Shown here: positions 6,826 to 61,300 of the stretch, one piece after another | Position numbering within the stretch: position 1 is the first letter of the stretch | How the letters are laid out: every line of letters starts with the position of its first letter | Assembly: GCA_963377175.1 (NCBI GenBank) | Contig: CAUJNA010000536.1 | Location: 18,501-82,500 of the forward strand | Source: Effrenium voratum | Taxonomy: Eukaryota; Sar; Dinophyceae; Suessiales; Symbiodiniaceae | Length of the DNA stretch: 64,000 nt | Reading direction: 5' to 3' | Notes under the pieces: model-generated | What the model was told of the DNA's origin: nothing | Seen by the model: the letters and a program-made list of their open reading frames with translations, nothing else | The model's database searches: none | Position numbers and translations under genes: made by a program

Positions 6826-7000
6826 TGCATGTGTGAAGTTGCATACGTTGTACAAAGGTTCCGGGTTTGACACATCCTTCGGGCCAGCGCGACCCATTGT
6901 GTCAGATTGTGGAAGCTGGCTGCAAAGAGACAGCAGGCATTTGGCCAGCTAAGCTAGTCAAAATGTTTGTAAGAAGCTAATGAGAGCCCCCATGGCGGCC

Positions 7001-7129
<129 letters not shown>

Positions 7130-11290: not shown

Positions 11291-11304
11291 TGTGTGTGTG
11301 CATA

Positions 11305-11350
11305 GGTGTCCTTTTTGGTTGGTTTGCTTAAAACGCAGAGGGCCCTGGTT

Positions 11351-11392
<42 letters not shown>

Positions 11393-12938: not shown

Positions 12939-13047
12939 CGACGCCAACTCCCCGCCGATTTCGCGCCTCGGATGCCGCGAGGTCGGGGACTCCGTGCGCC
13001 TCGTGGGGCTCGAGGCCTTCGCCGCGCTCAACGGGCGCCGGGGGAAG
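12939..13047 (+). CDS. exon with LNGRRG barrel-like motif
   Basis: Reads ANSPPISRLGCREVGDSV and then RLVGLEAFAALNGRRGK. A GT donor follows at 13048. The 5' limit is uncertain: AG sites lie at 12937, 12917 and just before the GTCGGGGAC codons. Confidence 0.5.
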
Positions 13048-18368: not shown

Positions 18369-18497
18369 ATGGAGGCCTCGCCCACCGGGCGGCTGCGGAG
18401 CAGGTCGGTGCGGGGCTCCACGCTGGAGCTGCTCACCTTCACCAGGCAGACGTCTCCGTCCAAGCAGAGCAGCAAATCCTCCTGCGGGCGCCTTGGT
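18369..18497 (+). CDS. channel 2, first exon
   Basis: ATG in a very GC-rich island reads MEASPTGRLRSRSVRGS, then TLELLTFTRQTSPSKQSS. A Ser/Arg/Thr-rich cytosolic start. The donor is not certain (a GC or GT site near 18485-18500). It could instead belong to a separate short gene, but the next exons lie on the same strand and continue in order. Confidence 0.55.
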
Positions 18498-32690: not shown

Positions 32691-32871
32691 GTTTAATTTT
32701 TTTTCAGGGGAGGGGGCCCACCAAAATTTTGGTGTTTTTCCCGTTGGTTTCCATTTTTCTCCACCAAAAAGGGGGGGGGACCAGGCAAGCCACCCATGCG
32801 CCTTTTTTTGCGTCAGGCCATGGACGACTCGAAACGGTTTCTTGGCATCCAACCCTTCAAAGCTCAATACC

Positions 32872-32980
32872 ATAAGCGTCCTTTTTAGGTTAGTTTGATT
32901 AAAAATAGACGGGTTCCACTGGTTTAGGTGGGGCTTCTTCCATCTACCAGGGCCATCTAGTTTTCCAAAAGGCCACCTAT
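32872..32980 (+). repeat. intron-type element, family C, copy 2
   Basis: AGCGTCCTTTTTAGGTTAG to AAAAGGCCACCTAT, flanked by a perfect 10-bp duplication GCTCAATACC at 32862-32871 and 32981-32990. Confidence 0.9.
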
Positions 32981-33661
32981 GCTCAATACCCTACGGTTGC
33001 ACATCAGACACGTTCCGGGCTGTATTCACTTCCCCCTGAGTTTGGTTGTCCACTTCGAGCGTGCCGTGGGAAGCGATCTTGCGCCGAGTGAATGTCGCGT
33101 GCGGATCCGGAGTTGGCCGAAAACTGTTGAGACGTCATAGCTTCTTGCCACAGGTGGCGTTAGGGACTGGAGCGAAACCTGGAAGTTGTTTTTGGGACCC
33201 TAGGGTTCAAAGACATCTTCCGAGAAAACCCGATCTAGACGAAGAGGATTCCTTAGGTAAGCAAAAACGGTGGTCATATGAAGCCCCATGAAAACCAAAT
33301 GGCGGCTTGAACTGGGCAGATGTTGTTTTTTCGGGGAATGCGACCTGCGGGTGCGAATCGAAGCCCATGGGGCCCATGGCAGGAAAAGCGCAGAGTTTGG
33401 ACGAGGCCTTGGGAACCCGCTGGCATTCAGGTCGCTTTGGGCACCGATTTGGAGAAACGAAAAGCCCAAGGCCTTGGTTTCAGGTCTACGTGGTTCGGAT
33501 TGGTTTGGGACATTTGGAGTTGAAGGCTCTTGTGAACGGGAATCGCGAAAGCTTCCAAGCCACGATGCTGAAGCAGATGCTTTGTGGAGACTGGACATAT
33601 TGCGAAGAGTGGCGGCTGCAAGACTGGTTTGGGTTTGGGCCATGCGGATTTTCCGAGAGCT

Positions 33662-40300: not shown

Positions 40301-43300
40301 TCTTTTCCGGGCCCCAGACACCCAACAACCTGCTTGCCGAAATGAGTGGCAAAGGGCGATTGATTGGACCACAGGGACACCTTCTACGGACGTTTCTGAA
40401 CCTAGGATGACCAAGGATAAGACTCCTTTTTTTGGGATAAGGGACATAGATTCCGCAAACCAACCGTGCCCGATGTTAATACCGAGGTGGGTGCGCCATT
40501 TCTTGGAAGGTACCCTTTCCGGGTCAAATTGATTGAAAACCACAACCAACTGGGACCTGAAGAATGGGTCCCTTTGTTTTCCTTTTTGTTTCCCCATTGA
40601 AGGCAGGAAAAGGTGGGTGCCAGCCCAAAGACAGGCCCTTTAGGCACACGCGAGAGAAGCCCATGCCGCCGCAAGCGAAGACCAGGAACTCTTGAAGTGG
40701 CCCACGCGCTGGCGCCACTTCTTTTGCTTCCTGCGACCGGCGGAGGCGAGGCCTCGCCATTCCCTGCGCGCGTCACTGAACTTCCAAAAGCGGCCGCGGC
40801 CAGTAAATTGATCAGCGTTTGAAGGGAAATCCAGTCATCCATGCAGAATTCTGGGCAGGTGGTTTGTTTGTTTTCTACGCTGGGGGGGGTGCCATATGGA
40901 TTTGGACGGTCCACAATTCGTGGCTGGTTTGCGGGTTCTTGTCAGGGGTGGTTGCCTATAACGGGTGTGTCAACTTCCCAGTAAAGCAGCCACCACAAGG
41001 GTACCCTCAAAATCACACACACACACACGTGGAGAAGATGTGGAGATGTGGAGAGGATTTGAAGGGCGCCCCAAAAAGGTGACTCTTCAGACAGCCTCGC
41101 AGGTAGAGCTTTTTTCCCCCGAAGGTTTCGTTGACATATCGGCTATGAATCAAAGCAACTGGCTGGGTGAAATGAGCCCTTTGAGAGACTCATGCTACTC
41201 ATATCACTCGGTTCAGTGGCAACAGCTGTTCATAAACCGTTCATTTCTCCAGTTCCAAAAACATATGCTCTAATTCCATTTCCCTGTCTTGTAGGTAAGC
41301 AAGGGAACCGCCCTTAAACCAATAGGAAAATGGCCTGTTGCCTGCTACAGTGGTGGCTCTAAATGGGGCTTCGATGGACCAAAGAGCAATTTCGCGAGAC
41401 AGATGAGACCTAAGTCAGCAATAAAAATACCTTACTCAATACCTAGGGAGTAATTGCCAGTAAAAAAATGGCCCAAGAGGGAGTCAAATTAGATGATGAT
41501 TGCTCCTGAAGGGTATATCAACCCAACCATCGTTGTAATGGTGGTTTGAACCCTAGGGCAATAATTTGTTTGGACAATCTCCCCTCATGGCAAATGGCGG
41601 AGGATTCATGCCTCCAGAATCCATCAAGAACTGGCGAACATGGAGGGCCCCCAACTTCTTGAAGGACCCCGATTTCTTGGGCTTCTCCGTTTCTTTTCTG
41701 GGATTCCCCGAACCCCCCCCCCCCAGTAACAATGGGCTTCTCCGGTTTTGGGCTTCCCCTTTTTCCCCAAAGTTCCTCTATCTCATTTTCTTCGAGGTGC
41801 CCAGGCGGTAATTTCGGAACCCGGGGCCCTCGCGGCGCGCGCTGAAAGCTTCTTCGCGCGGCAGGCGTCCCTGGCCAGCGGCGCAAAGGACTGGCGCCGG
41901 AAGAGGTTCGAGGCCGAAGGCTCAAGCCGCCGCTCGAAAGGGCGACTCTGTCTGGTGGTCCAAAACCTCCGGCGCCTTTGGGTCGTTGTGAACTTGGTTA
42001 GTTGGGTTGCCCAAGATGGGGTGTCATTTTAGAATAATTAGGGCCTCAACAAGAGTACAGACGCGTTTGGGCGCGCCTTTCTTTTTAGGGCCTTTGTTTC
42101 GTGGTTGTCCTTTCAGTTTGTGCTTCAAAAAGCCCACCAACAAAGGGGGTTCCCTTCGTCTTGCCCATTTGAGTTTGAGGTCTGGGACCTCAACAATGAC
42201 CGATCTCGAGCAGAGGTGCCGACTTTGGACGAATCGATCGAAGCACGCAGAGCGAGGTGTACCATGAGCCACGGGGGGGTCGAAACACGTCGTGTTTTGA
42301 GCATAGCATGCTCGCCGCTGTGCTCTCGAATTGAGGCTTAAGGAATATCCTGCATTGCGAGGCTCGGATACATGAGTGCGAGCTACAAGGCAGGCAAGGC
42401 AGACTGCTTTCTGCAATTCGGTTCTCAGGTTCTCAGCGTTATTGCCACTTGGTTCCAGAGGGCCCTTGCTGGAGCCATGGAGCACGTGGTTTTCAGTCAG
42501 CTGAATGCGCTGGATGATGCCACCTTGGCGTCTTGTCGGCGTGTCCCCAAAAAACCAGGGGACCCGGCCCCGATTGTCCTATTGTTGGGGACAGGTTTGA
42601 TAATTTTGGCCGTTGCTATGAGAAACGCAGCGGCTAGTTTGGCAGGGGCGCGGGGCCCAACACGAAGCTTCAATTACGAATTCTCTATTCTCTCTCATGT
42701 GTGTGTGTGTGTTGCGGGTAGCACCTTTGCGCCATGTTGGGTGTCCACAAACGACAGTCACCGATGCATCCTTGGAGCCAAAGTTGCATCTCCGAGATGT
42801 TCGGAATTTTGGGGCGGATGGCCTTCCGCCGAACGCCTTCCGCTTAGGCGACCATCATCACAGACTTGGTGCGCGACAAGCCTGAGCTGGCACCGGCGCT
42901 GGTGAGCTTAGCAGTTCCCGCCCCTTCTCGGGATGGACTTCTCATGACCCATTTGTTCGTTGGTTCAATTCGTTACCCGGTTTGTGACCATCGATTTGTC
43001 AAAAAAAGAACGGCCTGGGGGTCGAAACATGGTGTTCGGGTCCGAGTAAAAAACACATCATACACACTAGCTTGGTTCAAAGGGAAGCCAAAAGGACAGC
43101 TGTCATTTGGAGGGGGTCCCTTTGAGACACAGCGCCGTTGCGTCCCGCACCCGCCCATTCGAGTGATCAGATGGGAAAGCTTGGATGCTCAGGATCTGAC
43201 CTTTGCACCGACCAAAGCTCTGATCGGCGAGGGCGCTCGATGTACGGGCACCATCAAGAAATCCCCGGCAGACTCTTGAATGACATATAGATATGGCGCA

Positions 43301-46300
43301 AATGAGCTATGGTCAGAATTAACAAAGCCAAAGGGACACACCATTTGTCCTTTTTGAGGCTCCTCAAAATGGGCAGGCCCATGTGTGTGGTCAAAAGCTT
43401 GTTACTTGTGGGTAGGGATGATCCTCCACCTCGTGAGTGGGCTCTAGACAGCCAATATAAAGTTGCCTAAGGGACACACAAGGAGCTTGAACCACGGCAT
43501 GAGCGCCAAAAGAGCATCCTGATTGTTGCTAGTGAGGCCAGCCTCTTTACGTCCAAAATGGGCGGAAGCACATTCCACATTCATCACCGACTCCTACAGA
43601 TGGAGTTGATACGGGGAAGAATGTCGACCCCGCAACTGGGAGAATGTCGACCCCGAACCTGGGGTCGATTTTTTTCTGGGGTTCCCACAGGAACTGGGCT
43701 TCGGGTTTATCGACTGCCCCGATCTGAACTCGGTCTTCGGCTGCGATGTGGTGGTCTTCCCGCAGCAGGCATCTGAAAGCCAGCGCGCCTTATTCTTGGA
43801 ATCGGGCGGAGGAATCTTGAGGCTTCCAACCCCCCGGAAATTTTCGTTCCGGAGGGTTCCATTCTCTTGGGCTGTTGGGGATTCCTCCTGGGCTTATATA
43901 TATATATATACACATACATGGTATGTTTGTTGGGGGGGTATGGTTCCCCTAAATTTCAACCGATTCTCATTAAAAGAAGGGCCCAAGGGGAGGCCAATTC
44001 TAAGAGTCGGAAGGCATTTGTGGACGTGAATCGCCAAATTTTGATGATTTCGGGTCCCTAAGCACAAATCATGCCCACATTTTGAGAGTGACTCCGATTG
44101 GTTCGAGAGAAAACGTCTGATTTCGGCCTTTGCGGCCTTTGCTGCCAAATTTTCTTGCTTTGAAATGCTTAAATCACTGAGGCCGAGGCTTCATCAGAAG
44201 GGGCCTGAGCACACACACGGCTTTGGGGCATATTTTGTCTGGCCTTTTAACGGCCGTGGCAGAAAGGCTGCAAACGGATTGCTCCGGTGGCTCGCGAGGT
44301 GTTTTTGGGAGGTCGAGCTTGGCGGTTCCGATGGGACTTGAAGCATTCTGTTCATCCTCTCCAATGGGAAGGAAGCTGACTGAGGTCAGGTACAGGAAGG
44401 AACGGGAGCGAGCGCGCCATGGTGGGGACCCGGGAAGGATGTTTCAGCATTGACTATCATGGGAAGCCATTCAACCGGAATTGGGGGGCAGGGTGGGGTG
44501 GGTTGCCACTTTTCTTGACCCGTGAGTTGGTCAACAAGGGATGCACCAAAACATGGTAACAAGAGGATGCTGGTTGGACAGTGAGTGAGAGAAAATGCTG
44601 AACGACAAGCAAGCCGGTGTAGATGTGCTGTGAGGCCACAGCCTGCTTTGTCCATCGTAAGCTACGGTCAATTTGGTAGGGACATTGGGGGGACTCACTA
44701 AATTCCCTACAGCGAAGCTAGTTTCGAGAGAATTTGACAGGGCTCCTTAAAAGATACATGTTGCCCATTTGAAACATGGCTTTTTCCACCAAAATGAAGG
44801 GACACCACGATTTACAAGGCAATGTTCAAGTGCATAATGTAAGGATCCCTGTTTGATTTGTCTGCGTCTCAAGTGAAGATCATTCCCTACCGCTCGCAGG
44901 TCGGCACGTTGACCGAGGGTCAACGTGTGAATTTTGTCCGTGCCTTATGGCCCAGCGTGGCAATAGTGCCCGGTGGGCAATTCGAGATGTGGCGGTGAAA
45001 CTTGACAGGGCATGCCTTCCCAAATGCTTGGTGGACAAAATCCCCGCCAAGATGATGTCCACAAAAGGGTCTCCAATTGAACTTTGTACTCCTATTAGCC
45101 ATGATCAAAAGTCTCAGTTACTTGGGGTTAGGGGCTGGTCATGGACTCGGAAGGGGTTTTGGACAATCGTTAGACGGGTTCTTAAGGGAGCCATGACTCG
45201 ACCAGAGCCATCTTTGTCATGTGTCGCGGCCTTGACACTGTCGACTCTGAGGCTGTTACACTGAATGAAGAGAACAAGCCGCAAGCCTTTGATTTGGCGG
45301 AAGAGGAATCTCAAGATGCACTAAAAATTCCTTGCTCCGCATGCGGCTTGCCGCATGTTCTTTGAGTGGCCTCTCTTGAGGCGCTTTCTTTGCTTTTTTT
45401 TCCGACTCAGGAGCCCAAAGGCATGATGATGATGAATCCCATGGGTGGCTGCTCTATGGGCTCCATGGGTAGTATGGGCATGGGCATGGGCATGAATGGA
45501 GGGGGCATGGATGCCACTGCTGCTATGGCGAAGTCTGCCGCGCGGCCGCCCCCGCGCCTTTTATGCAAGACCGACGCAATCCCATGGGTGTGACACGTGT
45601 TTGGGTGTATGTTTGTGTGCGTGTGTGAACGTGTGTATGTGTGTATGGGTGTATGGGTGTGTGTGTGTGTGTGTGTGTGTGCGTGTGTGTTTGTTTTTGG
45701 CGGGACCCGAAGTGGTGAACATCGTTCACGTGGGATTTTGTCCGCCGACCACCTTGAGGGTTCCAATTTCAAGCTCATGCGCATATGGGGTTGTCTCAAA
45801 ATAGACACGCCCATACTTTCGTCAATTTCTTTCGGGCTGCTCTTGGCTTGGAAACCACGGCCTGCATCCCTGGAGAGGCTTTAAAAGGAAAGTACAACTT
45901 GCTTGCAGGGTCTAACTGGGTGCATGCATGTTTTGAGGCTCAGTACCCTTGTCAGGTTGGTTTCATGAGAAACCAAGAGGAAATCCGCACATGGTCTCTT
46001 TTTGAGGGTGCCCTTTTTTGGTGGTTTTGAAGGCAAACCAGAAGGACATCCGCCCATTTTGTGGGTCAATTTCCTAAAAACCGACGAGCGACGCATATCC
46101 AATTCGATTTCTGCTGCAGTGCCGCGAGTCCAGCGTTGAAAGCTGCGACTGGGACTCAGGAGCCAAGACTTTGGGCCTCCTGATCAAGAGCTTGGAGTCT
46201 TCGCCTTGCACTGAGTCGCATTGCTGGAAGGCGTCAGTTGGAGGTGTCCTTTAATTCTTGGGCGTTTTGGGGGGTGGTTAAACGGATTGAAACCCCGCCT

Positions 46301-49300
46301 TTCTTAAGGGGCCCCCCTCGATTTCTGAGACACACCCTGTTGGGGGAGTTTTGTTGCAGCGCCGGCTTGTCCCTTGGTTGGAATCCGTTTGATTGTGACC
46401 CGTATCAGAGCGTCCCAAGAGGGAAGTTGTCTTCCGGGCCCCGCCCCCAGTCAGGTAGGTTGGTGGGAGGGTTGTGGTGTTTGTTTAGGGAGGATATGGG
46501 CCCGTGCAGATTTCCCCATCTGCTGGACACCAGCTCATTTGCGTCTCATGTAAAGGATGGTGCAAGAACGGTTTGTCATTGGCCTGCTGGGTTTGCTCAG
46601 CAAGCAACTTCCCTGAACGGATGGTGGGTTGTGATTGGCTTCCGTAGGGATTTGTTGCAATGTGTTTTTGATGGTTTGCATGAAATAGCGGCAACACAGA
46701 CTGAGATGGAAGGAATGTTTGACCCTGAGGGGAGTTCATCGACTCTCATGTGGCAGCTGCTGCTTCGAGTCGCTCCAAAGGATGACCAGCTTGAATGGCC
46801 CTAAGCTCTCTTGTTCAAAGCTCATGCCGGTTTTTCCCTTTTGGGGGAAATCATGTTGCACCCAGAATCAGGCCGTTGGCCACCCGAAAACCGCCGCTTT
46901 TTGGCGAAACCCGCAACGCCGCTTTGGCCCGAAACGTGTGCCATGCGCTTTCGCTAAAGCGCTGAGGTCGGACACTTCAAAGTCTGGCAGGCTGAAAAGG
47001 GCACCGGCCGCCGGGCGGCAGTCGGATGTCGAAGGGGGTGCCTCCCACTGCCGGGTTCCACTTTTGGATTGTCACAAGACAGACTCAAACCCAGGGATGC
47101 ATCTTCCTAAAGGGAAAACCTTGGCAAGTCTTCCTTGGGGTAGGATTGTGACAAGGAAGACTCAAAAGTCAGGGGTTCATTTTCCCCGCAACAAAAAACC
47201 GTTGATTTTTAGCCTTCCTTGGGTAATCCAAGAGTGGAGCCCTTGTCCATGGATTTTTCGGGCTTTAAAAGCAGCGCCCCCCCTCCCCCCGCAACACTGG
47301 TGTTGCAGATTTCCGCGCTTGCCGATGTCTGGCGGTGCAACGCCGCACGGTCGAAGCGTGATGGCATCAACATCGATTTTCTGGTGCCTGGGGGGGTACC
47401 CTAGTTCTAGTTTGTGGACGTCTAAAGGAGTCGGACCTGCATATGTTTATAAGGAAACCGCCAACTTTTGGGGTCATTGTTTCGAGGTCATTGTTTCGAG
47501 GCCCCTTGCCTTTTTGAGCGCTTCCCGTTTGAAGTGCCCTCCGCTTCATGGGGAGAACACCTCCCAATCTGCTGACAGTTCCTTGGCGGTCGAAACGCCG
47601 AGGCTTGATCATTAGCGACGGCCTGCGTGAGCAAGGCGAGAGTTGAGCAGCGATGGGTCGAATCGCCACAACCGCAGGGTAGTTGGAGTGAGGGACATGC
47701 CACTAGCTCTTGTTCAAATGCATCAATCAGTTTTAGCTGGGAGCCGAAGAGTAGCATCACTTTTGCGGCAAAGCTGTGCTTCCTACATCCGGCTTGTTGA
47801 TTTTGATATGGTGGCAAAGGTGTCCTTTGTAGGTTAGTTTGGTTGGACATAGACGTGTTCGGTTGAGATTGGTTTGTTCCATACCGGGGCCGTCTATTTT
47901 TCCTTAGAAGGTCGCCTATGTTCGTTGGTGCATCCCAGTTGTCACATTCGGCCCCGGCCCCGAAGCGGTTCCTGAGGACTCAAATGGGGGAAGCACCAAA
48001 GTGGTTGGCCGAACAGATGTCCGCAGGTTCCTCCAAGAAACTCACTTCCCGCATCGAGCTCGCAATAAGTTACCGGAAGCTTTGCCCTTAAAGTCTTGCC
48101 TTCTTGGTTTCTTTTGAACCCACCTCCCAAAAAAAGGGGTACTCCCGATTTCTTGAAGATGGAGTCGTTTCGGCAGTGGTTCGATTCGCTCACCCGCGAG
48201 TTCCCGCGAGGCTACAGCGGCGAAGTGGTGCTGCCGGCGCATCAGAGGCGGAACTTCCAGCCTGGCCAGGACTGTTGTGGATGGAGAAAATGCAAGTTGC
48301 ACCAGTTGGGATGGGTGGTTTCACGGGGACTTTCAAGGGGAGGGGCACTCCAAGTCGTACCAGGGATGGGTGGTTTACTGGGACTGTGGATAGAGCAAAT
48401 CCCGGGAGTGGCACCAGTCTTGATCCTTTCCGGCCTGAGCCACGCGGGCAAAAACGAGTCGAATCACTTGTGATACCCAAAGCCTGTGCTTCTAGTGTCG
48501 CCTTAGCTAGGTTGCACCAGCTTGGGATTGGCGGGAATTTCAAGGGTGGGATGGGTGGCTTACAGGGTTGACCCGGGAATTTCGAGGGGTCTGACTCATC
48601 CGTTCCGACTGCAGTTTCAGGTTCGCTGCTTTGTGGCCTCTTTGGTAAACGGATCCTTGGACTTTAACTTGGTCGAATCAGGTGGGATTTTCCATACCCA
48701 CAACAAGTTATGCACATCATGCAGAGGGGTCAGCAACCAAGCCACCGGGTATGGGTCAAGCCCAGCTTCTGAGCCCGGCTGACTTGGCTTTGGGGGTAGG
48801 CCTATGCTCGTGGTCACCTTGGAAACGTTGCGGAGGGGTAGGGGGTTCGTTGGGCTTCCCAGAGGCTTGATGGGGAAAATTTATGGGTTTCTGGACAGAG
48901 ATTCAGGGAAGGAGCCCCCGCAAAAAAGAGCGCGCATTGGGGGAAACTCCGAACAGGCGAGGCCTTTTGGTTCCGTGTTGATGTGTAGGGCGTGAATGGA
49001 CAAAGTGGAAACCAAACGAACAAGTACACGGGTTTGTCTCAAGATAAGACTTCGCACCTCCCAAAATGGGTTTCGGTTTCCTTCTGGTTTCACTTCCCCC
49101 CCCCCCCTCCGCCCCGAAAAAAAGAACAAAAAAGAAGGTACCCTCCAACAAAAAAAGACAACCAAACAAACAACATGGAAAGAATGTGGAAAACATGGAC
49201 CCAATTGAGAACAGCCGTTTGGAGGTGGCACCCGCCAGGCTTTCTGCTTCGTGCAAGACGGTTTCGCGCCAGGATGTTTCCTTCACAGCGGTACTTCGTG

Positions 49301-52300
49301 CCTCGGCGTGCGAAACGGGTCGCAAGGTGGCTGCGACCCATCTGCGTGTTGTTTCCCGAAAGCGTCGCGAAGGGTTCTTCCGCGCGGAGCTCTCGGGCCA
49401 ACTTGCATAGAGTCACTTGCGCAGAGTCAAATTAAATACTTAGAGCCAAGTGCATGGAGCCAAGTGCATAGAGCCGTGCATAGAGCCAAGTGCATAGAGC
49501 CAAGTGCATAGAGCCAAGTGCAAATAGAGCCAAGTTCATAGAGCCGAGTGCACAGAGCCGAGTGCGCAGAGCCGAGTGCATAGAGCCAAGTGCATGGAGC
49601 CAAGTGCATAGAGCCGAGTGCACAGAGCCAAGTGCATAGCGCTTCGGCGTTAGCAGCTATGTAAGTTAAGGTTAGGTTGCTAGGGCGCCGGGGCAGGATT
49701 TTGATCGTCGATCGGGATTGCGACCCTCTGCGAGGATCGGCGTGGTCGAGGTGCAAAAACTCGAGGTTTTTTGCGATTCTTGTGGCGCCCGCGCGACCCG
49801 GGGATCGGCGTGGTCGAGGTACAAAACTCGAGTTCTGATCTGCCCGCGCGACCCTCTGCGGGGATCGGTGTGGTCGAGGTACAAAAACTCAAGTTTTTTG
49901 ATTTCTGATCTGCCCTCGCGACCCTCTGCAGGGATCGGCGTGGTCGAGGTGTTTTGCGTTTTTGCGGTGCGCGGATGAACCCTCTGCGGGGATCGTGCGT
50001 GCCTCTGCAGAGATCGTGCGTGTCGAAGCGCTCTCGCTGTGGCGCCGTTCTTTTTTTCCTCGCGTATGGAAGTTGTCTCGCGGTTTGCGGGCGTGGTTTC
50101 GCAATGCGCGGTCGCGGGTTCGATTCCCCCCTGGTCCGCGGCAGCTCCGGCTCAAGCAAAGAAGCCGTAGTATGTGGAGTGTACTCCTGGCGGCTCCGAC
50201 CGGAAAATCGCAACCCTGAAGCGCAGACATGGAGCACCTCCACAGCTCAGCTCAGGCTGAGCATCTTGCGCACAGATACAGCGCCGAGCGTCTTGCGGAG
50301 AAAAACTTACACAGAGCAACGTGCACAGAACAGCTTGAAGACAGATGTCGAGCCACTTGCGCGCAGCAGCTTGCAGAGAGCAACTTGCGCGCAGCAGCCT
50401 GGAACAATGCAGCTTGCGCAGACACTGCCATGTTTCCTCTCGTAGGACGATGAGATGGAGCTCTCATGTGACCATACACATTGAGCATCGCCGCGTGCAG
50501 ACACGCATCGATGTAAAAAGGTGTCTCCGCGGCTAGCGCTTGGGGAAAAATGCTTTCGGGCCAATCGTCCTCTAGTTTTTTCTTCGGTCGGAAGAAGGCT
50601 CGATTCGGGGTTGGCTGAGTCATTTCGAGTAGTTCCGGTGGGTCTTTTGGTCGGTTTAAGGCTTGGGGTCGGCTTCGAGTGGTTTTAGGCTGGAGGCTTT
50701 GGGACTTTTGATTCACACCTGGATAGCCAGTTGCTGCTTTTTCCCATCCACTTTACCCCAACAACCGGCTGCAAAAACAACGGCAACTTTTTTTCTTGGC
50801 AAAGAGTTGCGTCGCGCCAAGAGTTCCTTTGGCCCCCCCAACCAACCAACCAACCCCCCCCCCCACCAACCAACCCCCCCCAACCAGCCACTCCCCCCAG
50901 AAAGCGCGGGACCCGCCCCACGGCTTTCGGCCTGCGAGCTGAGGGAACGGCCAGCTGCAGGCGCAAGAGCTGGAGAGCCCTTGGCGCCTCGGGTGGCAAG
51001 TTGCTCGCCATCTGTGTGCCGTTGCGGCCCATTCCCCAGAATTAGTTCCCCCTTTTTACTTTTTTTGTTTTCCATGAACCAGGCAAAAAAGATATTCTTT
51101 TGCTGGGGTCCTAATTCCAGCCAAGCATGTTCATGGCTTCCATGATGATGGCTTCTCAACACATGGGGATTTGCGCCGTTGTCCAGGTTCATGGCTTCTG
51201 AAAAGGCATCGGATTTTGGAGTAAGAGGGGATTTATACGTAGACACGTACATGGATTAAGCATCCGAAAAAATAATAATATTCAGGCAGTATATTTAGTA
51301 CGTATGTGTGCATGTGCAGATTTGCGGGGAGGCACATGGGTGGTGTCCACAGGAAAACCTGGGTTCAGGTGGTTTGGGCGTGTCTTTTGCAGGACCCAAT
51401 AGCTGGTTTGATTTTGGTTGCCCCGAAAATAGCTTGGGTTTTCCTTCGGGTTTCCCTTTCAAACCCACGAAACGAACGGTGCCTGCAAAAAAGGGGGGTG
51501 GGTCGCATTCGGACCTAGGATGGCTGGCTCCGGCATGGGACGGATGAACTTCGGCGAAGGCCTTTGCCTGACGCGAGCGACGTGTCGTCCAGGTGTATGC
51601 CACATGAACAACTTACAATCTTCTTGGCCGTCCAGAGTCGCTTTGGCAGGAAACAGGGGGGGGGGTTAGCACCATGCGCAAGACCCATCGCAAAGTGTCC
51701 TTGCCGACCTTTCGACAACCAATCACATAGTTGCGGTCGGGCTACTTATGGACAATTTGTTGAGACTATGGTTGCCTGGGCTCCTTCAGGGGGCCGGCCA
51801 TAGGATGACACGGATTTGGGTATATCCCTTCTGAGGGACGAAGCAAATGTGGAGTGGACAGCAAAGAACATCAGAAGCTACCGACAGCTGCGTCAAGGAG
51901 AAGTCAATCGGATTGAGCTGGGACCATTTGAGCAACTTTATCTATGAACCAACTTTGTGCTATGAGTCTTTGGCAGCTTATTTCAGGAGGATGTAGCAAA
52001 CAAGACCTGAATCTCTTTCGCACAAAAGAACAATGCAGAAACGGCAGCCAACCTTTCCTAAACCCATGCGAGGACAATTGATGCTGTGTGCTCATGTTGG
52101 ACGCCCGTTACCTTCTGACCATGTTTTACCTTTGAGCAGCCGCCTTCTGGCAGTGTAGAGACCCTTTTCAAGGACGCTGTTCAGTTCAGTGGAAAAGTGG
52201 AAACGGTAGACCTGCTTCTGACACATAACTTCTTGATGATTCAGGGATTGGAATCATTTCGAAAGGACGTCCAACAGATGTTTGTTTGTGGCGGACTTGC

Positions 52301-55300
52301 AGCAATTGCTGAACATAGCATGCCCGAAGACAGGACTACCTTGCCTTACCCTCTCACAGTTTTTCATCTAATCAATTAACATCTGGATAGTTTATATAAG
52401 GTTAGTAAGGGATAGTCCCAACCAAAGATAGGCGCGGCCGCCTTCATGATTCTTTGCTACTTTCATCTACCCTCCTTACCAGGTTTCGATTGCACGTCTT
52501 GTCACCCGCTGGGCGCGCGTTCAGAATGGTGTTTGTCGCAGGCATGCCGCCAGAGAAGAGATTCCGACCATTTTGATGTGGCGTGCTGGCTACCGGGTCA
52601 AGCCGGTGGAACGATGGCCTTAAAGGACACAGGGATTGTACATGGGGTTTGGTCGAAACTTCCGGAGGGACGCACTGAATGTCCCTTGTCCATAGGTGTC
52701 CTTTTTGGTTGCTCTGGTTAAAAAAAAAGAGGGCCCTGGTTTACGTGGTGGTTCAATCAGCTACCAGGGCCATCTATTTTCCAAGAAGGACACCTATGCC
52801 CATGTCCCTTTGGGGAAGCAAGTCATTTTGACCGTGCCTCATGTGCCTCGGAGCGAGTTGCGAGCGCAAGTCAGCCCAAGCTTCGCGGAGTCGCGCGACG
52901 GCGCGCACAATTTGCTTATATGTATCACCTTGCAGAGATGGCACGCGCGGGTGCAAAACGGGGCCGGCATAGATCTGATGATCCATAATCAAAACCCGAG
53001 TAGACGAAGGCTAAGGGAAAGTCGCAGCAAGAACTAGTTGTTGCCGCCTTCTTAATTCTTTACATGATTCTGGGTAGACCATTTTAATACCGGGTTTTGA
53101 TTGTGACTCTGATGCTCTTAGCAGCTTTGGCAGCTTGGAGTTTTGCAAAGATGGCACCTATGAGGTTTGGCCAACATGTTTCCAGTCTATGGTTCATGGA
53201 GGGACATGGGAGAACTCCCACCAGTGCCACACAAACATCGGGGACTCAAGGAAAATGGCCACTCAGGCCCTGTATTTTTGTTTTTGGTCGGGGCTCGCTT
53301 GAAGAGGGAGAGTATGAAGCGAAATCACTTTGATTGCCAATTAACAAAGCCCTCTTCGATTTGGATGCAGCACAATCTCTTTCATAATTAGGATCAATAC
53401 TACAATGTCCAATCTCTTTCAGGAAAGTTACCCCATTCAATCTCAACCGTTGGTCTTTTCAAACTGTTCCCTTTGGCTTTTGCCCCGGTTTTCCCGGCGA
53501 GGCTCGGATTTTTTTGGGTTCACTTCCTGGACGTCACATCCGCTAGGCGAAGTCGCGGGGCGCGCGCTTGGAGAAGGTCATCGCTGAGCTCACGGAGAGC
53601 ATCCGAGAGGCGGTCAAGTCCATGTAGAGTCTGCCTTTGTCTCCCGCTGAGACGTGGTTTTGCTCGGCTCCCTTTTAAACCAACTCCAAAAGAGGCTACC
53701 CTCAAAAAAGAAGACAAACCCATCGAAGGGGGAAGCCAAAGGGAAACTAGCCAGTTTGGGGGTTCCGAGACAAATCCACATTTAGCGTCTACCATTTAGC
53801 CGGTTGCTTCTCACCAACTTCCTGCGAAGACTCAAACGGGGAAAGGCGCAAGCGCCAAAACCGGTGCGTGTGGCTGAGCGAATTTTCTTAAAGGGACCCA
53901 CCTAGCTTGACATCGTGTGAGCCCAGAAATGTGCGCCTCGAACGCTTGGGGCCCTTGAGAACCCCACTCTTCAAACACCAACGGTTTAGAGGTTTGCCCT
54001 ACGTGCAATGGCCCAGCTGGAAAGGGGACCATCTCCGTGGCTTCCCTTTTTGGGTGAGGTGCGGGGGTAGCTTGGGGCCCATTTTTTCTTCTTCCCGCGT
54101 GCCGACTCCCCCCGCGCCCCCCCAAAATATGTTTTTCCGCGTGCTGAGAAAAATACATGTCTCAAAAGGCCCGGGCCTTTTGAGAAATGTATTTTTCGGC
54201 CCCCAAACATATTTTTTCCGCGTGTCGACTCCCCCAACTGCCCCTGATTTGTGGGCAACTTCGGTGGGATAAAACTCCAGAGTTTTATAGGGGGCGCGCG
54301 GGGGAACAGGCCATGTTTAAAAAACATGGGGGAGTCGGCACGCAACCTCGATAAATCTCGGTTGAATTTTGGGTGGGGCGGTTGGGGGGGCGCGGGGCAA
54401 CCGCCCCCCCCCTCCCCCTCGCGGCCCAATGTTTTTTCCCCACGTTTTTTTTTGTTTTTTTGGTTTTCAGGCGGGAGTTTTTTTCCCCCGAAAAACAATT
54501 ACATTTCTCAAAAGGCCTTTTGAGAAATGTATTCCCCCATTTTTTTAAAAATCTCCCCGCGGCCCCCCGCGCGCCTTTGCGCGCGCGCCCTCCGCGGGCC
54601 GGCTTGGGCTTCACAGGTGTCAAAGGCTCCTCACGCCTCCTGTACTGCTGGGCGTGTCATTTTTGAAGGGTAACCACTTTAGCCTTGTCGTCATAGGACA
54701 CCAAAAGGATCAGTGATGTTTGGAAGCCAGAAATACAACCACGGTTTTTGGGGTGCGGATCGCTACTTTGATACCAAGCCACACGTCGCATTACGCAGGC
54801 CTTGGAGATGAAGCACGCCATTTGCGGCGGCAAGGTGCGAGGGTGCGCGCGCTCGGTGATTTGTTTGTTTATCTTGGGCCGAAGCACCGGGTGCTGTCTC
54901 GGAGGGTTCTTGGTTTGAGGGGAGCCTTGGACACCTGTTGTTTGGCCCAAATTTCCCAAGTCGTCTTGGGGAAGCCAGTTTTTTGGTCCGGACATAGGGA
55001 CACACTGGACCTTTGAATGCATGTTGGAACGAGGGTTGGTCGCAGAGCTTGTTTAAGCAGCCAGGCCCAAAACGTGCCGTTGAGGGAAAGCGAAAAGGAG
55101 GTTGAAGCAATCGTGGTTTAAACCTGTTTCCGATGGCTGGCCAACAGCGGCTTCAAGATCTAGGTTGGAGCTTTTCAACATTGGCTAGGCCGGAAACCAA
55201 AGAGCACTTTGGGCTGTCCAAACGCCATGGGCAAGATCCTTGGGTTCTGAAAGGATTTGGCCCTGCTTTGGATTGCGCGATTTCGGCAAAAGGGGATTCT

Positions 55301-58300
55301 AGAATATCGGAGCCAACCTCTGTTGAGATTGACTTTGCGTTGCTCTCAGCATTGCCTCCAATTTTTTCCCACCTCGGCTGGCCCAAGCGTTTGGAAGAAG
55401 CGCATTCTCCAGGCCACCAGCTTGCCCCACTTTGCTCTACCGCACAGCTTTGCCGATGGATTCGTTGCTTTGCCGAGGGCCTAGACAGCTAGGCCTATTG
55501 GCTGCATATTGCCCGTCAGGTGAAAGCCAAGGTGGCCAGGGACTTCCTGGAGGCTGGGGACAGAGACCGGCCTTGGCTTTGCCGACCTCGGTTGAATCTG
55601 GCGAAGGTGCGAAGATGAATTTTGAGGCTTGGCGGCCCCTTTTCGGGGGCGGGGGGTTATTCTGAAGGTAGCGGCAAGCCCAGCTTTTGGAGTGAGACGA
55701 ACCCATGAAAACTTGCAATCGGTTCGATTGGCAGGGAGCCAGTTTCACCGACCCCGAGCTGAAGCATCGAACTGGTGGTTTTCAGGAATCGTCGGGTTTT
55801 CCCTGAGAGGCAGGTAAGAATCCTGCTGGGGAGTAATGTTGACTCCGGATTTGAGCAGAACCCGTCCTATGGGGGTTTCACCCTCCGCAAGTCATGAATC
55901 CCGCTTAAAAGGGGCACACCCCACGAGAGGGTTGCTGAATCTGGCGTTTCTACCAGGTTTTCCTCAGCATCCCCAAAGGGTTCACTCCTCAAGTTGAACC
56001 ATTTCAGAGACAAGAAACTCGACGACATTAGTTAAAGAAATTCTGGGTCTTAACAAGCACAAACACCATGATCCCTACTTCATTTCGTATAACAAGCTTT
56101 ACCACCTCATTCTATTTTCTGGGGGCTGTCGTTTTGAGTCGTTTGGGATTCTAAAACCAGGCTCACAACCCTTAAAAAACCCCGGAGTGAAAAGACACCA
56201 TGGTTTACCGTTCAGGATTGTTGTCATGTAAATTGGGTGCCCTGCCGGCCATTCGTTTTTACAGGGTCCCAACCGAGGGAAACCAAAAAGAAAACATCGC
56301 CTTCGGGACCAAGGGGCGATGCTCAGATCCACCAGGTTCCTAAACCCCCCACCAGTGCCTCAGTGGGGCTTCCATTCTTCCACCTTGATCACTTGGGGAC
56401 CGTTGAGCGTTTGGGGTTCCAAACGCATCAAATGGATACCTTGATGAAACTCACCCTCAAGTCACCCTCAAGTCACCCTCAAGTCACCCTCAAGTCACCC
56501 TCAAGTCACCCTCAAGTCACCGAGGTGAACTTTTGATACGGGTATGGGTCAAAATTAAGCCACCAGGAATTGGACCGCATATTTCCGTCCATGTTTCGAT
56601 TTTACCAGGGCTCCATTTGGCTACATCTTTTTGACCCACAGCCACGTGGAGAACGTCAGTTCCAATCGACTCAATGTTTGAGCCCCTGAGTTATAGAGTT
56701 ATGCTGCCTCGGAAGTGGTTGGACATAAAGCCCCACCATGATGGACAACCATACCAAGCTCATCAAATGCAGTTCCTCAGCTTGAGGCGCACCCGGACGC
56801 CCCCATGCCCCGTGCGCCACTGCGCGCCTTCCGCTACACCACGGCGGGAGGGGGCGCCGCGGCGCTCGGCAGGGTGGGGGAAGCCCAGAAGCCTGGGGAT
56901 CGGGCACTGAGCGCTCGAAAAGGCAACAAAGTCGCAAAAGGCCAAAAGACGGCACTAAAACGTTAACAAAGGCACGAAAAGCCCAAGCGCATGCACAATA
57001 AGGCAAACTAAAGGCACAACAAGGCCTAACAAGAATCAACACATGTCTAAAACACTGCCACAAGATGCATGAACATGCCTAATAGGCTTCAACCACGCCT
57101 GAACCAGGCACAACAAATCCTCAAGAGGCACACAGTGTGTGTGTGTCTGGTTTTCGAGTGCTCGTTGTTCTCTATAACCGGAACCCGCAGGAAAAGCCAC
57201 GGAACCCTTTGGCGGGGTGCTCTCCCGAGTTTTGGGAGAAGCCGCCTGGGACTTGGCGCCGATCAATCGACTTAGGATGGGTGGCCCAAGAGCCCCATCC
57301 TGAAGATGGGCTTCGACGTGGCGGAGCCCGGGCCCCAGATCTCAGATCCAAATGGGTTTGGAGTGGTGAAGGAAAAGCCTCAAGAAGGGGTTCAAATCCC
57401 CCAGTCCCCACCAATCCAGGCCGCCAACTAGGGGCAACCTGCTGATTGGGGGTAGAAATGGATGTCTCATCCTCCATGAATTGTAGGTGTGAGTTGTACG
57501 CGAATCGACCTCTTCACCTGGTTTTGCCCCTTTTGGTCTATTTGTCCAGGTTCAGAAGGTGATCACCTTTTCTTTCCAGTTGCCCTTTGGGCAAGTGAGA
57601 AATGTACCATTGGTACTTGGATGTTTGGCCAAGTAAGTGGTTCGCCACTTGGGGCTTTTGACCCCCCTAACCCCCCTAAGAACAAGGTTCACCCCAAAAA
57701 TCACTGGGAACGCAATTTAAGGCTCCCACCAACAACTTACTCACTTGGCGACTTGAGCACCCAGGTGAGCCACTTGATAACTGTTCGACGAATCTCCGCC
57801 TTTATAGTTCTTTGCGTTGGTTTGCTGGTGGGCCATTTTTGATAGGGCTGTTCAGGGAATCCCACTTTTTGCAAGTGGCCAATGTGGGCACGGTTGTGGG
57901 AATTGGGGGGGGGGGGGGGGGGGGCGCGATCGGTGTTGTGACCCAGGTACAGTTCGTTGCTGATTTTTTTCGCCCTCGCTCGGCTGCATCTCTGAGGCTC
58001 AACCCCTATTCTGGCAAGGCGCATGGGAGCGACTGACTCTTTGATGGATTGGGGGTCGGCTCGTCTGCCTTTCTTGGGGGGATTTTTGGAGCCCCAAATG
58101 GTGGCTTGCCTTTGAAATTTCCTGGCAACGGACAAAAGAAGGGGAGGTGCCGAGCCCCAGAACAGATGCACCCAGTCATAGGAGGGACTTTTTTCAGAGA
58201 CGATGGGGTTGACATCGCGCCATGCCAGGTCGTGATCATGGACGAATGCCATAACCTCGTCAGACCCAACCAGATGTACGAGGAGCCATTTGCGTGGGTT

Positions 58301-61300
58301 GATCAAAAGGTCTGTTAGATGGGATGACCTGTGGTTGGAAAACCACAAAAAAGGATAGTATGCCTAAAAGGGGAAAGTTAGCCATGGTCATTCGGAGGCA
58401 AGGGCAGCAAGGTGATGTCTGGAGCTTGAGAAACACTGATGATCCTCTTTTGAAAATCCAGATGCCCGAGCCACCTGTTTGCGGAATTTCTCAACCGCCG
58501 CGTTTCGGGTTCCAAAGGTGTCTGTCTTTTGGCTACCCTTTTTGGGGGTTGGTTGCCAGGGAAGCCAAGGGGAAACCGGAAACCATTTTTTTGGGTCCCT
58601 AGTTAGACGCGCCCATCCTCCTTTTACGAGAGGTTGGAGTCTCAGGACCAGCTCGGACATCTCCGAAATCTTCTGGTCCGTTCCTCACAAAAAGTGACCT
58701 GAGGGCAGGCAGCTGGGACCCCCGCTTTGCAACTATGGAAGTGGACAGCCGGGTTCTTTTGAATGCTCGGATTGTTGGCTTTGTTGGATGTTCGGATTTT
58801 TGGAAGTGGAAAGTTGGTCAAATTCCCCCCCCCCCCCCCCCTATCCCAAAAAGGGGCACCAAAATCCAAAAATGGCCATATCCACCCCTCACCATTCTTG
58901 TTTTGAAGACTGGCATCCTCTGAACAGGGCCCCTAACAATTCCAGGATTTGGAGAAGGCTATCATTCTGGCAAAGAGTCAAAGAGCCACACGTGGATCGC
59001 GTGCTGCAGTCACATTTTCGCAGCGGCCCGAAACAGGCCGCGCCAATTTGGCATTGTCTTTCAATGGGGGTGTCTTTTGTTGCGCCTCAGGCACTGGCAC
59101 ACCCAAATGTGGCAAACTTTTCGCAGAAGTATTTATTTCCGTTTTGGTTTTCCACTGGACCAGGCCCCAAAGAGGTTCCCTCCAAACTCCTCCACCCCCC
59201 TCCGCCCCGATCTGCAGCCCTCCGAGCGAGCGCCGGTCTCTCGCAATCGCTTTGCCAGCACGATGCGACTCGGACCGTCCTGGCCGGATTCACCGGGACG
59301 CCGGCCGGCGCCTCAGTGAAGGGGATGATAATTTTACATGACCCCAAATGGGGGTGGGGGTTGTTTGTTGTGGTGGTGGCGGTTGTTGTGGTGGTTGTGG
59401 TGGCGATTGTTGTGGTGGTGGTTGTTGTTGTGGTTGTTGCGGTTGTTGTGGTTTTTGTGGTGATCAATATTCCCTTCGGCCCAAGCCACCATGGGTCACT
59501 TATTGAGGCCGAACAGAAGTCCCCACATGTCCAATCAGTCCATGTCCCACTTGAAAGCCAGAAGGTCAGCGCTCCTAGAGTGTCACTTGGGCCAAGCCGG
59601 GCTGCCAGGTGGGCAACGATGCGGCAGAAGGCTGGAGATATGCCAGTTCTGGGTCCTAAGCCACAAAGTTTCCTGATGCAACAAGAAAACAAACGCTTCT
59701 TGCCGGCAATAGTGCGATTCTCCTGTGATTTCTTGAGACAGGCAGGGCGCTTCTTGACATCATCAAGGCGGGGTGAGGGTCAGATTCGCTTTGCCCCGTT
59801 TCAAAGCAAGGCGCCGATGAGGTGCTTTCCCCTGGGTCTGCTCTTGGGGCTGTGGCTGGTGGCTTGGTTTGAGCCAGCATCCTCAGCATGTCCAGCATCA
59901 TTTGGACGAGTTTGGTGCTGACCCACCTGGACAAATTGATCAGGGCCAAACGGGTTCAAATGATGCTGGTGATGCTGAAGATGCGATCCACCCTGTTGAT
60001 TTAATGTGCAACTGTCAGGAGCATATGCATAGATATAGAAACATGAAAATGGAAGCTATGCTTGAGAACAATTGGAGAACAATTGCACGTTCGAAAGATT
60101 GCAAGTCGTGTTTCAATATCATACATGAGGCTCCATATTGGTACAACACTACTGGAAGATGCCGGGAAGGCAACGACGCCTACCGTTGAGTTTCCTCAGA
60201 TAGATCGCAGCTTGTTGATCCATGCAGGTTCGGTCCCCTGCTTTAGGATGGCTGTTTTCACTTGCCGCGCGGAGCTCAGGGGAAGCACTGCGACGCGGGG
60301 GACGAGGCGCGGGTCGCTTCTTGGACTTGAGACGGTCCCTTGAAGCATGAAACCACCAAATCGTTTGACCTCCGGACATCTTCCCTCACATCAAACCACC
60401 TGAAGCAGCCGCTGGCCTTTTCCCGGAGGGCGCGGCCGTGCGGTTTTTGCGGCGCCGAGTTTTTGCCTCCGTCGCTTCCCTCGCGAGGGCTTCATCTCGT
60501 GCTTCCACGCCCGGGCGAATGAGGACTTCCCCAGGGAGGCGCTTCGGTGGCACATTCGTTGGCCCCCCTTCGTCCCCCACTCAGACTGCAATGGTGGTGG
60601 AGGGTAGGCGGGAAGGTTTCTGGGTCTAGGGTAGTTCCATTTTGGGTTTGTGCTTTTTTGGAGGTTTGGTACCCTTCTTGGAGTGGTTTCAAAGGGATAC
60701 ACACACAGGATACAGCACCATGTTTGGCATTTGACTCGTTTCTCGAAAAAGAATAAGCTCAGGTAACATCCCCAACAGCATGCGGTGCTCTTTTTAGTGC
60801 TCGCACCACCCCGCAGCCTTTGCAGAACCTCGTGGCGGACCACCCCGGAAAGCTTTCAGCTGTTGGGGAAGGAGAAAAAACAACTTTTGGGGCGATTTCC
60901 TTTTTGAGGGTCCGCGACGGACCCAGTTTTTGAGGAAGTCGAGGGCTTAACTTGCCCGCAATGTTGGCTGAAACGGCAGGTGCCGGTGCAGGGAATCCCG
61001 GATGGTGTGCTGCACGACGAGATGTTGCCGGACCTGACCTCAGAAAGGGTGACGGTTGTTCGAAGCCACCGATTGGTTTTGCAGCTCCGTTTTTCTTGGT
61101 GCGGTAATGAGGGAATGACCCCTATAAACCATTCTTTGTGGTTTCCAAAGAATTCCCCAGGTTCATTCGTTCCCTACCTATCGCACCAGCAAGTTATGCC
61201 CAGGGTCGAAAAAGACGACTCCTGCGAAGGCTAAGAGGCTGGGCCCCAATTTGGCCGAGGATCTGGTGAGGATGCACTCTCTTCATGGAGAGGCAGAGCT

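What the first reader, a model, noticed from the sequence alone, without database searches (positions are those of the whole stretch)
42848..45590. Cold-shock domain between helicase motifs Ia and II
Three exons (43193, 43691, 44900) join in phase 0 to GTIKKSP-ELGFGFIDCP...-VGTLTEGQ, a cold-shock fold, followed by a Met/Gly-rich exon. They stand on the same strand between the helicase exons at 42.5 kb and 55.5 kb, and the preceding exon at 42848 is also in phase. Either this is a helicase with an inserted RNA-binding domain, an architecture I do not know, or a separate gene nested in the helicase.
Basis: inference. Interest (0 to 1): 0.75.

Follow-up and report, generated by a model that had tools for sequence, protein, structure and literature searches.

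The report
RNA-binding gene nested inside helicase gene
In what appears to be a dinoflagellate alga, a complete gene for a cold-shock (RNA-binding) protein sits, on the same strand, inside one long intron of an unrelated helicase gene; the helicase itself probably carries no cold-shock domain, and genes nested this way are already known in such algae.

Summary
The cold-shock exons are real, but they are very probably not part of the helicase. They belong to a complete, separate 15-exon gene (42477-52576, + strand, 275 aa, own ATG and TGA) encoding N-terminal helices, a cold-shock domain (CSD), a Met/Gly-rich linker and a second CSD. Standalone relatives match over its full length, best 67% identity, E 1.5e-111. 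The gene lies wholly inside one 11,331-base intron of an SF2/ResIII-like helicase gene (34 exons modelled, 33674-63566; the other 32 introns of that model are 1,308 bases or less). Eight of 18 helicase hits cover this point and none of the eight has a CSD there. An in-frame chimera (helicase exon 13 to CSD exon 2) is open on paper, but no relative found supports it. The helicase probably starts near 13 kb, so an ion-channel gene (about 18.4-30.2 kb) is probably nested too. Precedent: 6.5-8.4% of Polarella genes are nested in introns (PMC7245778). Unusual: degenerate RNP motifs, tiny exons, mostly GC/GA donors. RNA evidence is lacking.

The parts
42477..52576 (+). nested CSD gene, 15 coding exons, 275 aa, ATG to TGA
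   Evidence: spliced alignment to P0010; same 15 exons with P0005 and P0007 apart from the 3' end of exon 6 and the last alignment end; translated
42477..42527 (+). CSD gene exon 1, start codon (MEHVVFSQLNALDDATL)
   Evidence: tblastn 30.2 bits; relatives start MEDVVFNQLN
42848..42919 (+). CSD gene exon 2 (ATIITDLVRDKPELAPALVSLAVP)
   Evidence: 43.0 bits
43193..43270 (+). CSD gene exon 3, start of CSD1; end 43267 or 43270
   Evidence: 43.9 bits
43691..43768 (+). CSD gene exon 4, CSD1 core (ELGFGFIDCPDLNSVFGCDVVVFPQQ)
   Evidence: 57.6 bits
44900..44935 (+). CSD gene exon 5, CSD1 (VGTLTEGQRVNF)
   Evidence: 25.5 bits, near chance level alone
45252..45305 (+). CSD gene exon 6, end of CSD1 (AVTLNEENKPQAFDLAEE); 3' end 45305, 45314 or 45317
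   Evidence: one tblastn hit of 43.9 bits together with exon 7
45411..45553 (+). CSD gene exon 7, Met/Gly-rich linker
46160..46202 (+). CSD gene exon 8
   Evidence: 22.5 bits, chance level alone
46967..47006 (+). CSD gene exon 9, start of CSD2 (VGHFKVWQAEKGT)
   Evidence: 29.7 bits
47603..47635 (+). CSD gene exon 10 (weak; placed by the spliced alignment only)
   Evidence: no tblastn hit
48211..48269 (+). CSD gene exon 11, CSD2 (YSGEVVLPAHQRRNFQPGQ)
   Evidence: 49.5 bits
49273..49297 (+). CSD gene exon 12 (DVSFTAVL)
   Evidence: 22.0 bits, chance level alone
50944..50983 (+). CSD gene exon 13 (NGQLQAQELESP)
   Evidence: 28.0 bits
51519..51559 (+). CSD gene exon 14 (weak)
   Evidence: 19.9 bits, chance level alone
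52542..52576 (+). CSD gene exon 15 with stop TGA (MPPEKRFRPF*)
   Evidence: 27.6 bits
33674..42215 (+). host helicase exons 1-13 of the model (Walker A 37921-37998, next exon TLIMLR 39020-39073, last exon before the gap 42180-42215)
   Evidence: spliced alignment to P0001+P0013
42216..53546 (+). host helicase intron, 11331 nt, GT donor, AG acceptor, phase 0, containing the whole CSD gene
53547..63566 (+). host helicase exons 14-34 of the model (DECH 58229-58282, GFTGTP 59259-59303); the gene runs on beyond
   Evidence: exons 24-25 revised by hand
12982..16947 (+). probable N-terminal exons of the host helicase (12982-13050, 14196-14240, 15780-15811, 16915-16947)
   Evidence: P0001 residues 25-135: spliced score 173 against 109-124 for 12 shuffles; single pieces at most 29.3 bits against 28.0 for a shuffle
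18370..30215 (+). second, probable nested gene: voltage-gated ion channel with EF-hands; start approximate, stop TGA 30213-30215
   Evidence: Pfam Ion_trans 7e-15, EF-hand_7 2.5e-7 on window-derived pieces (pieces)

Best explanation
A complete cold-shock-domain protein gene lies, in the same orientation, inside one 11.3-kb intron of a dinoflagellate SF2/ResIII-like helicase gene. Shown here: both gene structures and their separate relatives. Inferred: each gene makes its own mRNA. The helicase mRNA forms by cis-splicing exon 13 to exon 14, removing the CSD gene with the intron. The CSD mRNA is made from the same or a second transcript, its 5' end probably set by spliced-leader (DinoSL) trans-splicing at an AG shortly before the ATG (candidate: the AG 18 nt upstream of 42477), followed by its own polyadenylation. 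If both come from one pre-mRNA, the two products compete. The protein is most likely an RNA/ssDNA-binding, RNP-type protein: N-terminal helices, two CSDs with degenerate RNP motifs and a disordered Met/Gly linker, working more like a multi-CSD scaffold (Unr-type) than a bacterial cold-shock chaperone.
For: Complete 15-exon ORF, no frameshift or stop; the same 15 exons with two further close relatives. Shuffle control 814 versus 177-207. Full-length standalone relatives, best 67% identity over 100%, 22 hits, eight of them with transcriptome labels, one of these Polarella. Helicase model with 33 of 33 introns ending AG and no stop; best relative 67% identity over 92%, E 3.7e-202. 8 of 18 helicase hits span the nesting point without a CSD. 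No protein scanned matches both kinds of domain (14 and 21 scanned). N-terminal helices, two five-strand CSD-like domains and a disordered linker in the predicted structure of relative P0010; top PDB matches Unr CSD456, Unr CSD1-2 and, at rank 5, CspA. Nested genes, and PF00313 among the two most enriched domains in DinoSL transcripts, are reported in Polarella (PMC7245778, passages).
Against: No RNA data for this organism, so separate transcripts, the trans-splice site and the poly(A) site are inferred. No match to a 12-base DinoSL core within 1 mismatch in the window (about 1 expected by chance), so no relict supports it. [quoted passage not shown] The own genome could not be searched (genome search did not complete), so other copies and assembly checks are missing. 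CSD exons 10 and 14 are weak and exons 5, 8 and 12 do not stand out on their own. Pfam sees the second CSD only at E 1 or less. The protein searches could not see proteins longer than 861 aa, and searches scored only the 7996 and 7994 best candidates. Synteny in relatives could not be read.
Confidence: 0.92

Rival explanations
1. One helicase with an inserted CSD: exon 13 splices into CSD exons and back to helicase exon 14, giving an RNA-binding helicase.
For: Phases allow it: exon 13 and CSD exon 2 are phase 0, and insertions ending after CSD exon 2, 3, 4, 5, 6, 8 or 11 return in frame without a stop in the exons tested (helicase exons up to 23).
Against: Phase 0 is simply the common phase here (28 of 33 helicase introns; 8 of 14 CSD introns). 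The complete CSD gene has its own conserved start and ends in a stop before the DECH exon. 0 of 14 helicases scanned have PF00313 and 0 of 21 CSD proteins scanned a helicase family. Helicase relatives have no such insert at this point (8 of 18 cover it). Fusions over 861 aa were outside the searches.
Confidence: 0.04
2. A regulated chimeric isoform besides the two normal mRNAs (so not exclusive of the best explanation): helicase exons 1-13 spliced to CSD exons 2-15, ending at the CSD stop, so that an intronic poly(A) site yields a truncated helicase with a CSD tail.
For: The joined reading frame is open over these exons and stops only at the CSD stop (stop at codon 453 of 454). Same-strand nesting makes such splicing mechanically possible.
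Against: No protein of this make-up among the hits. At about 450 aa it would be within the length limits of all three; with the probable N-terminal exons (roughly 600-650 aa, my estimate) within those. It would lack the DECH motif.
Confidence: 0.06
3. Assembly error: a CSD-gene segment wrongly placed inside the helicase, or one of the two is a dead copy.
Against: Both genes are open in every modelled exon. The helicase exons continue in order, strand and phase on both sides. No undetermined base in the window.
Confidence: 0.04

Closest known systems
Nested genes in introns of Polarella glacialis (PMC7245778; passages read)
   Same: A gene within an intron of a multi-exon dinoflagellate host; 8.4% and 6.5% of predicted genes there; hosts with up to 18 and 24 nested genes; the nested structure of an alanine-tRNA ligase example is said to be confirmed by full-length transcripts. 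Their pipeline allowed nested genes in introns over 10,000 bp; the intron here has 11,331.
   Different: Here the nested gene is itself highly split (15 exons); no transcript evidence here; species not known.
Standalone dinoflagellate CSD proteins P0005-P0011 and P0016-P0022
   Same: Similar N-terminal PELAP-type segment, CSD1, Met/Gly-rich linker and further CSD(s) (own reading); 64-67% identity over 99-100% for P0005-P0011.
   Different: Some distant relatives have three CSDs (P0016 three stretches; P0017 by own reading); the window protein has two. Where their genes lie is unknown.
Canonical dinoflagellate CSPs such as LpCSP1/2 (PMC4863620, PMC8106185; passages)
   Same: PF00313 domain and a Gly-rich region.
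   Different: Those carry KGFGFI and VFVHF motifs in a single N-terminal CSD; here the motifs are LGFGFI/VVVFPQ and KGTGLI/VVLPAH, with two CSDs separated by the linker. This order is not among the architectures in Table 3 of the review PMC12787238 as shown in passages.
Unr / CSDE1 multi-CSD proteins (PDB 6y6e, 6y6m)
   Same: Several CSDs in one chain; the top two Foldseek matches. That Unr has RNA-binding and non-canonical CSDs is recalled, not taken from a call.
   Different: No relationship shown beyond the CSD fold; TM-scores for the whole chain are low (0.19-0.30), so only the single-domain match is meaningful. RNase II and the Mpa ATPase, other OB-fold proteins, also rank in the top nine.
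Dinoflagellate ResIII-type helicases P0001, P0031, P0032
   Same: Same helicase as the host: 67-80% identity in the aligned parts.

Membership tests
Same-strand intronic nested gene | whole nested gene inside one intron of the host | tested here: met
   15 of 15 CSD exons lie in 42216-53546
Same-strand intronic nested gene | host exons on both sides belong to one gene | tested here: met
   of 18 helicase hits 8 cover the joint: P0001, P0002, P0003, P0031, P0032, P0033 without a gap, P0004 with inserts of 1-4 residues, P0012 lacking 12 residues; 9 do not cover it by this test and P0040 was a chance alignment
Same-strand intronic nested gene | nested gene has its own start and stop | tested here: met
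   ATG 42477 aligned with the starts of relatives, TGA 52574-52576
Same-strand intronic nested gene | separate transcripts | not testable with these tools
   no RNA data for this organism; transcriptome relatives exist as separate proteins
CSD superfamily (PF00313) | Pfam match above the gathering score | tested here: met
   41.1 bits against 27 for the whole protein; best stretch 58-119, second stretch only at E 1 or less
CSD superfamily (PF00313) | OB-type five-strand barrel | tested here: met
   model of relative P0010: overall pLDDT 64.8, ten-residue means 67-84 in CSD1 and 84-88 in CSD2; CspA TMt 0.74; the window protein itself was not modelled
Canonical dinoflagellate CSP | RNP1 KGFGFI and RNP2 VFVHF, said to be in all dinoflagellate CSDs | tested here: not met
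   CSD1 LGFGFI and VVVFPQ, CSD2 KGTGLI and VVLPAH in the spliced protein (the CSD2 RNP1 lies in part in weak exon 10); criterion from PMC4863620, PMC8106185 and PMC12787238. Filed as a CSD-superfamily protein, not as a canonical CSP
SF2 helicase, ResIII type | Walker A, DExH and GFTGTP-type motifs in order; Pfam ResIII | tested here: met
   ResIII 7.1e-11, 42.7 bits against 22.5; GTGK/T, DECH and GFTGTP in the model; motif names recalled
Helicase with inserted CSD | one protein with both domains in this or a related species | tested here: not met
   0 of 14 and 0 of 21; limited to proteins of 861 aa or less
DinoSL trans-spliced transcript | spliced leader at the mRNA 5' end | not testable with these tools
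   no transcript; an AG lies 18 nt before the ATG

The most novel reading that the evidence does not exclude
One 50-kb host transcript encodes three proteins: helicase, ion channel and CSD protein, the latter two nested in its introns on the same strand. The choice between cis-splicing the helicase and trans-splicing/polyadenylating the nested genes, including an in-frame helicase-CSD chimera, acts as a switch. The nested product, an RNA-binding protein, could even bias that choice.
Probability: 0.06. Interest if true: 0.7.

Novelty: new member of a known kind. Interest (0 to 1): 0.36.

Why it matters
It replaces a seemingly new helicase architecture with a clean example of same-strand nesting in a dinoflagellate: two fully resolved, micro-exon-rich genes, one inside the other, probably with a third. 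How a cell keeps such overlapping splice programmes apart, with mostly GC and GA donors and spliced-leader trans-splicing, is, as far as I know, open. This locus makes it testable with a handful of junction reads. The CSD protein also suggests that dinoflagellate CSDs do not all carry the canonical RNP motifs.

Tried and rejected
Rejected: helicase with inserted CSD (no relative found has both; own start and stop). An apparent frameshift in the helicase after 56873 and an in-frame TGA at 59774-59776 were model artefacts: exon 57276-57325, and a 15-nt exon 59807-59821 with a GC donor after 59767, give an open frame. This 15-nt exon was chosen by me to fit the relatives, not scored.

Led nowhere: Pfam scan of two raw forward frames of 40001-54999 (best TRS130_4HB 0.11) and PDB search of one (0 matches) found nothing relevant. 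PDB search of the early helicase composite gave 24 weak matches (KaiC, best E 0.2), and of the short CSD piece 9 weak ones, eight of them cold-shock proteins. Rfam 0 and tRNA 0 in the window. No DinoSL core within 1 mismatch. The blast of the flanks and of the CSD gene against the window shows dispersed short repeats and no clear insertion scar. Distant relatives P0016-P0018 place exons 1-5 identically (3' end of exon 3 varies by 3 nt) but give 21-26 exons in all, with one frameshift each for P0016 and P0018; I put this down to their extra CSD. P0040 was flagged by the script as spanning the joint (score 47); I dropped it, since the aligned part belongs to its C-terminal domain. P0023 was left out of alignment A1 and so (21 of 22 hits scanned); P0003, P0004, P0034 and P0040 were left out of A2 and so (14 of 18 scanned).


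Full report
What was claimed and what is there. The exons exist. Single exons are too short for profile scans of raw frames (two and one forward frames of 40001-54999, gave nothing useful), so I worked with spliced models. A first composite of my own exon readings gave Pfam ResIII at 7.5e-11 for the helicase part and PF00313 at 0.0013, below its cut-off, for the CSD part.

Two families, not one. One 359-aa query containing both sets of exons returned 15 proteins that fall into two separate groups: eight helicases (P0001-P0004, P0012-P0015) and seven CSD proteins of 281-366 aa (P0005-P0011). None had both (own reading). P0001 is from Symbiodinium sp. CCMP2456, and a later hit, P0016, is labelled as a Polarella transcript, so I take the window to be from a dinoflagellate, probably of the Suessiales; the species was not determined.

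The CSD gene. I wrote a spliced protein-to-DNA aligner (introns G[TCA]...AG) and aligned P0010 to 42300-53000. The result is a 15-exon gene from ATG 42477 to TGA 52574-52576, 275 codons before the stop, without a frameshift or an internal stop. Its 14 introns all end in AG; donors are 9 GC, 3 GA and 2 GT; phase is 0 in 8 of 14. P0005 and P0007 give the same 15 exons except for the 3' end of exon 6 (45305, 45314 or 45317) and the last alignment end. The score is 814, against 177-207 for 12 shuffled versions and 161-198 in four other stretches. In a plain tblastn, exons 1-4, 6-7 (one hit), 9, 11, 13 and 15 score 27.6-57.6 bits, above the best chance-looking hit of P0010 there (25.0); exons 5, 8, 12 and 14 (19.9-25.5) do not stand out alone, and exon 10 has no hit (+ strand, 30-64 kb shown). 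The protein searched as a whole finds 22 relatives, the best at 67% identity over 100% (E 1.5e-111); eight bear transcriptome labels (P0016, P0018, P0020, P0021, P0025, P0026, P0028, P0029). PF00313 now scores 1.7e-10, 41.1 bits.

The host gene. The same aligner, guided by P0001 and P0013, gives a helicase with 34 exons from 33674 to about 63566, going on past the model. One in-frame TGA in that model disappears when the exon is ended at a GC donor and a 15-nt exon is used. The revised model has no stop, 33 introns ending in AG (19 GC, 7 GA, 7 GT donors), a median intron of 429 and a largest of 11,331; the next largest is 1,308. That one large intron, 42216-53546, holds the entire CSD gene: 261 nt separate helicase exon 13 from the ATG, and 970 nt separate the CSD stop from helicase exon 14. 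Searched as a whole, the helicase finds 14 proteins, the best P0031 at 67% identity over 92%, E 3.7e-202. Of 18 helicase hits, eight cover the nesting point: six without any gap, P0004 with inserts of one to four residues, and P0012 lacking twelve residues; none has a CSD there. Nine do not cover it by this test and one (P0040) was a chance alignment.

Is there any fused protein? Of 14 helicases scanned none has PF00313; of 21 CSD proteins scanned none has a helicase family, both at E 0.01. The searches could only see proteins up to 861 aa, so a long fusion is not strictly excluded. On paper, exon 13 can be joined to CSD exon 2 in frame, and CSD stretches ending after exon 2, 3, 4, 5, 6, 8 or 11 could return to exon 14 in frame. 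But phase 0 is the common phase in both genes (28 of 33 and 8 of 14), so agreement of phase says little.

A second nested gene, probably. P0001's N-terminal part maps to 12982, 14196, 15780 and 16915 in order (with further small pieces that I do not trust). Residues 25-135 score 173 against 109-124 for 12 shuffles, although the single pieces are not significant on their own (29.3 bits at best against 28.0 for a shuffle). Between these exons and 33674 lies an ion-channel gene with EF-hands, about 18.4-30.2 kb on the same strand (Ion_trans 7e-15, EF-hand_7 2.5e-7 on window letters). If the N-terminal exons are the helicase's, as I think likely (about 0.7), the host spans more than 50 kb and contains two nested genes.

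What the protein is. AlphaFold2 on the relative P0010 with 21 sequences gives N-terminal helices, a first five-strand domain (about 58-122), a disordered linker (128-187) and a second five-strand domain (about 190-259). Overall pLDDT is only 64.8 and pTM 0.31; ten-residue means are 67-84 in the first domain and 84-88 in the second. Foldseek's top two are Unr CSD456 and Unr CSD1-2; RNase II and the Mpa ATPase (also OB folds) follow, and CspA is fifth (TMt 0.74). Papers state that all dinoflagellate CSDs carry KGFGFI and a VFVH motif (PMC4863620, PMC8106185, PMC12787238; passages). Here CSD1 has LGFGFI and VVVFPQ, and CSD2 has KGTGLI (partly in weak exon 10) and VVLPAH. So it is a CSD-superfamily protein but not a canonical CSP. 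Weaker or altered nucleic-acid binding is an inference.

How it likely works, and what is known. In Polarella, 8.4% and 6.5% of predicted genes are nested within introns, some hosts have many, a nested structure is said to be confirmed by full-length transcripts, and PF00313 is among the two most enriched domains in spliced-leader transcripts (PMC7245778; passages). Against this, only 13.5% and 50.4% of full-length transcripts there carried the leader, and a cited title says that tandem-array transcripts are not polycistronic. The simplest mechanism is two mRNAs from one region: helicase by cis-splicing across the 11.3-kb intron, CSD mRNA by a trans-spliced 5' end and its own poly(A) site. None of these RNA steps was shown here. 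My literature searches for nested genes in dinoflagellates gave PMC7245778 as the only dinoflagellate precedent that I recognised from titles and passages; the other papers listed were not opened for this. The search for dinoflagellate, cold shock domain and helicase together (10 papers) listed no title or shown start of abstract that describes a CSD-helicase fusion; full texts were not checked for it.

Verdict. It is a new member of a known kind with a few features worth a specialist's note.

Noticed in passing
window 18370-30215 (+): Voltage-gated ion channel with EF-hands, probably nested in the same helicase host (Pfam Ion_trans 7e-15).
   Followed up: partly
window 4303-6747 (+): Single long stop-to-stop open frame of 815 codons that reads like a cyclic-nucleotide-type channel (own reading; no family search made), in contrast to the micro-exon genes downstream.
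   Followed up: no
window 33674-63566 and 42477-52576: Very small exons: mean 43-44 nt in 34 helicase exons and 55 nt in 15 CSD exons (828 nt), against averages of 101-158 bp in the first six of seven columns (578 in the seventh) of a table seen in a passage of PMC7245778 (column names not shown). Donors mostly GC or GA.
   Followed up: partly
window 28406-28544, 13591-13708, 16290-16374: Short elements with inverted ends (TACTGTGGATGG...CCATCCACAGTA in the first), MITE-like, outside the exons modelled.
   Followed up: no
window 27585-27702, 32870-32982, 52690-52798, 11297-11360: A second short inverted-repeat element (CATAGGTGTCC...GGACACCTATG); one copy starts 114 nt after the CSD stop.
   Followed up: no
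window 49397-49639: Tandem array of 'agagccaagtgcat'-like units inside CSD gene intron 12.
   Followed up: no
window 6985-7128 (+): CTG/CTN-type run reading as poly-leucine (poly-Asn on the other strand).
   Followed up: no
P0035, P0038, P0014: Distant relatives of the host helicase, two of them (P0035, P0038) on contigs of 11.8 and 13.2 kb; P0035 shows a weak NPHI_C match (0.02), which might hint at a giant-virus link of this helicase family.
   Followed up: no
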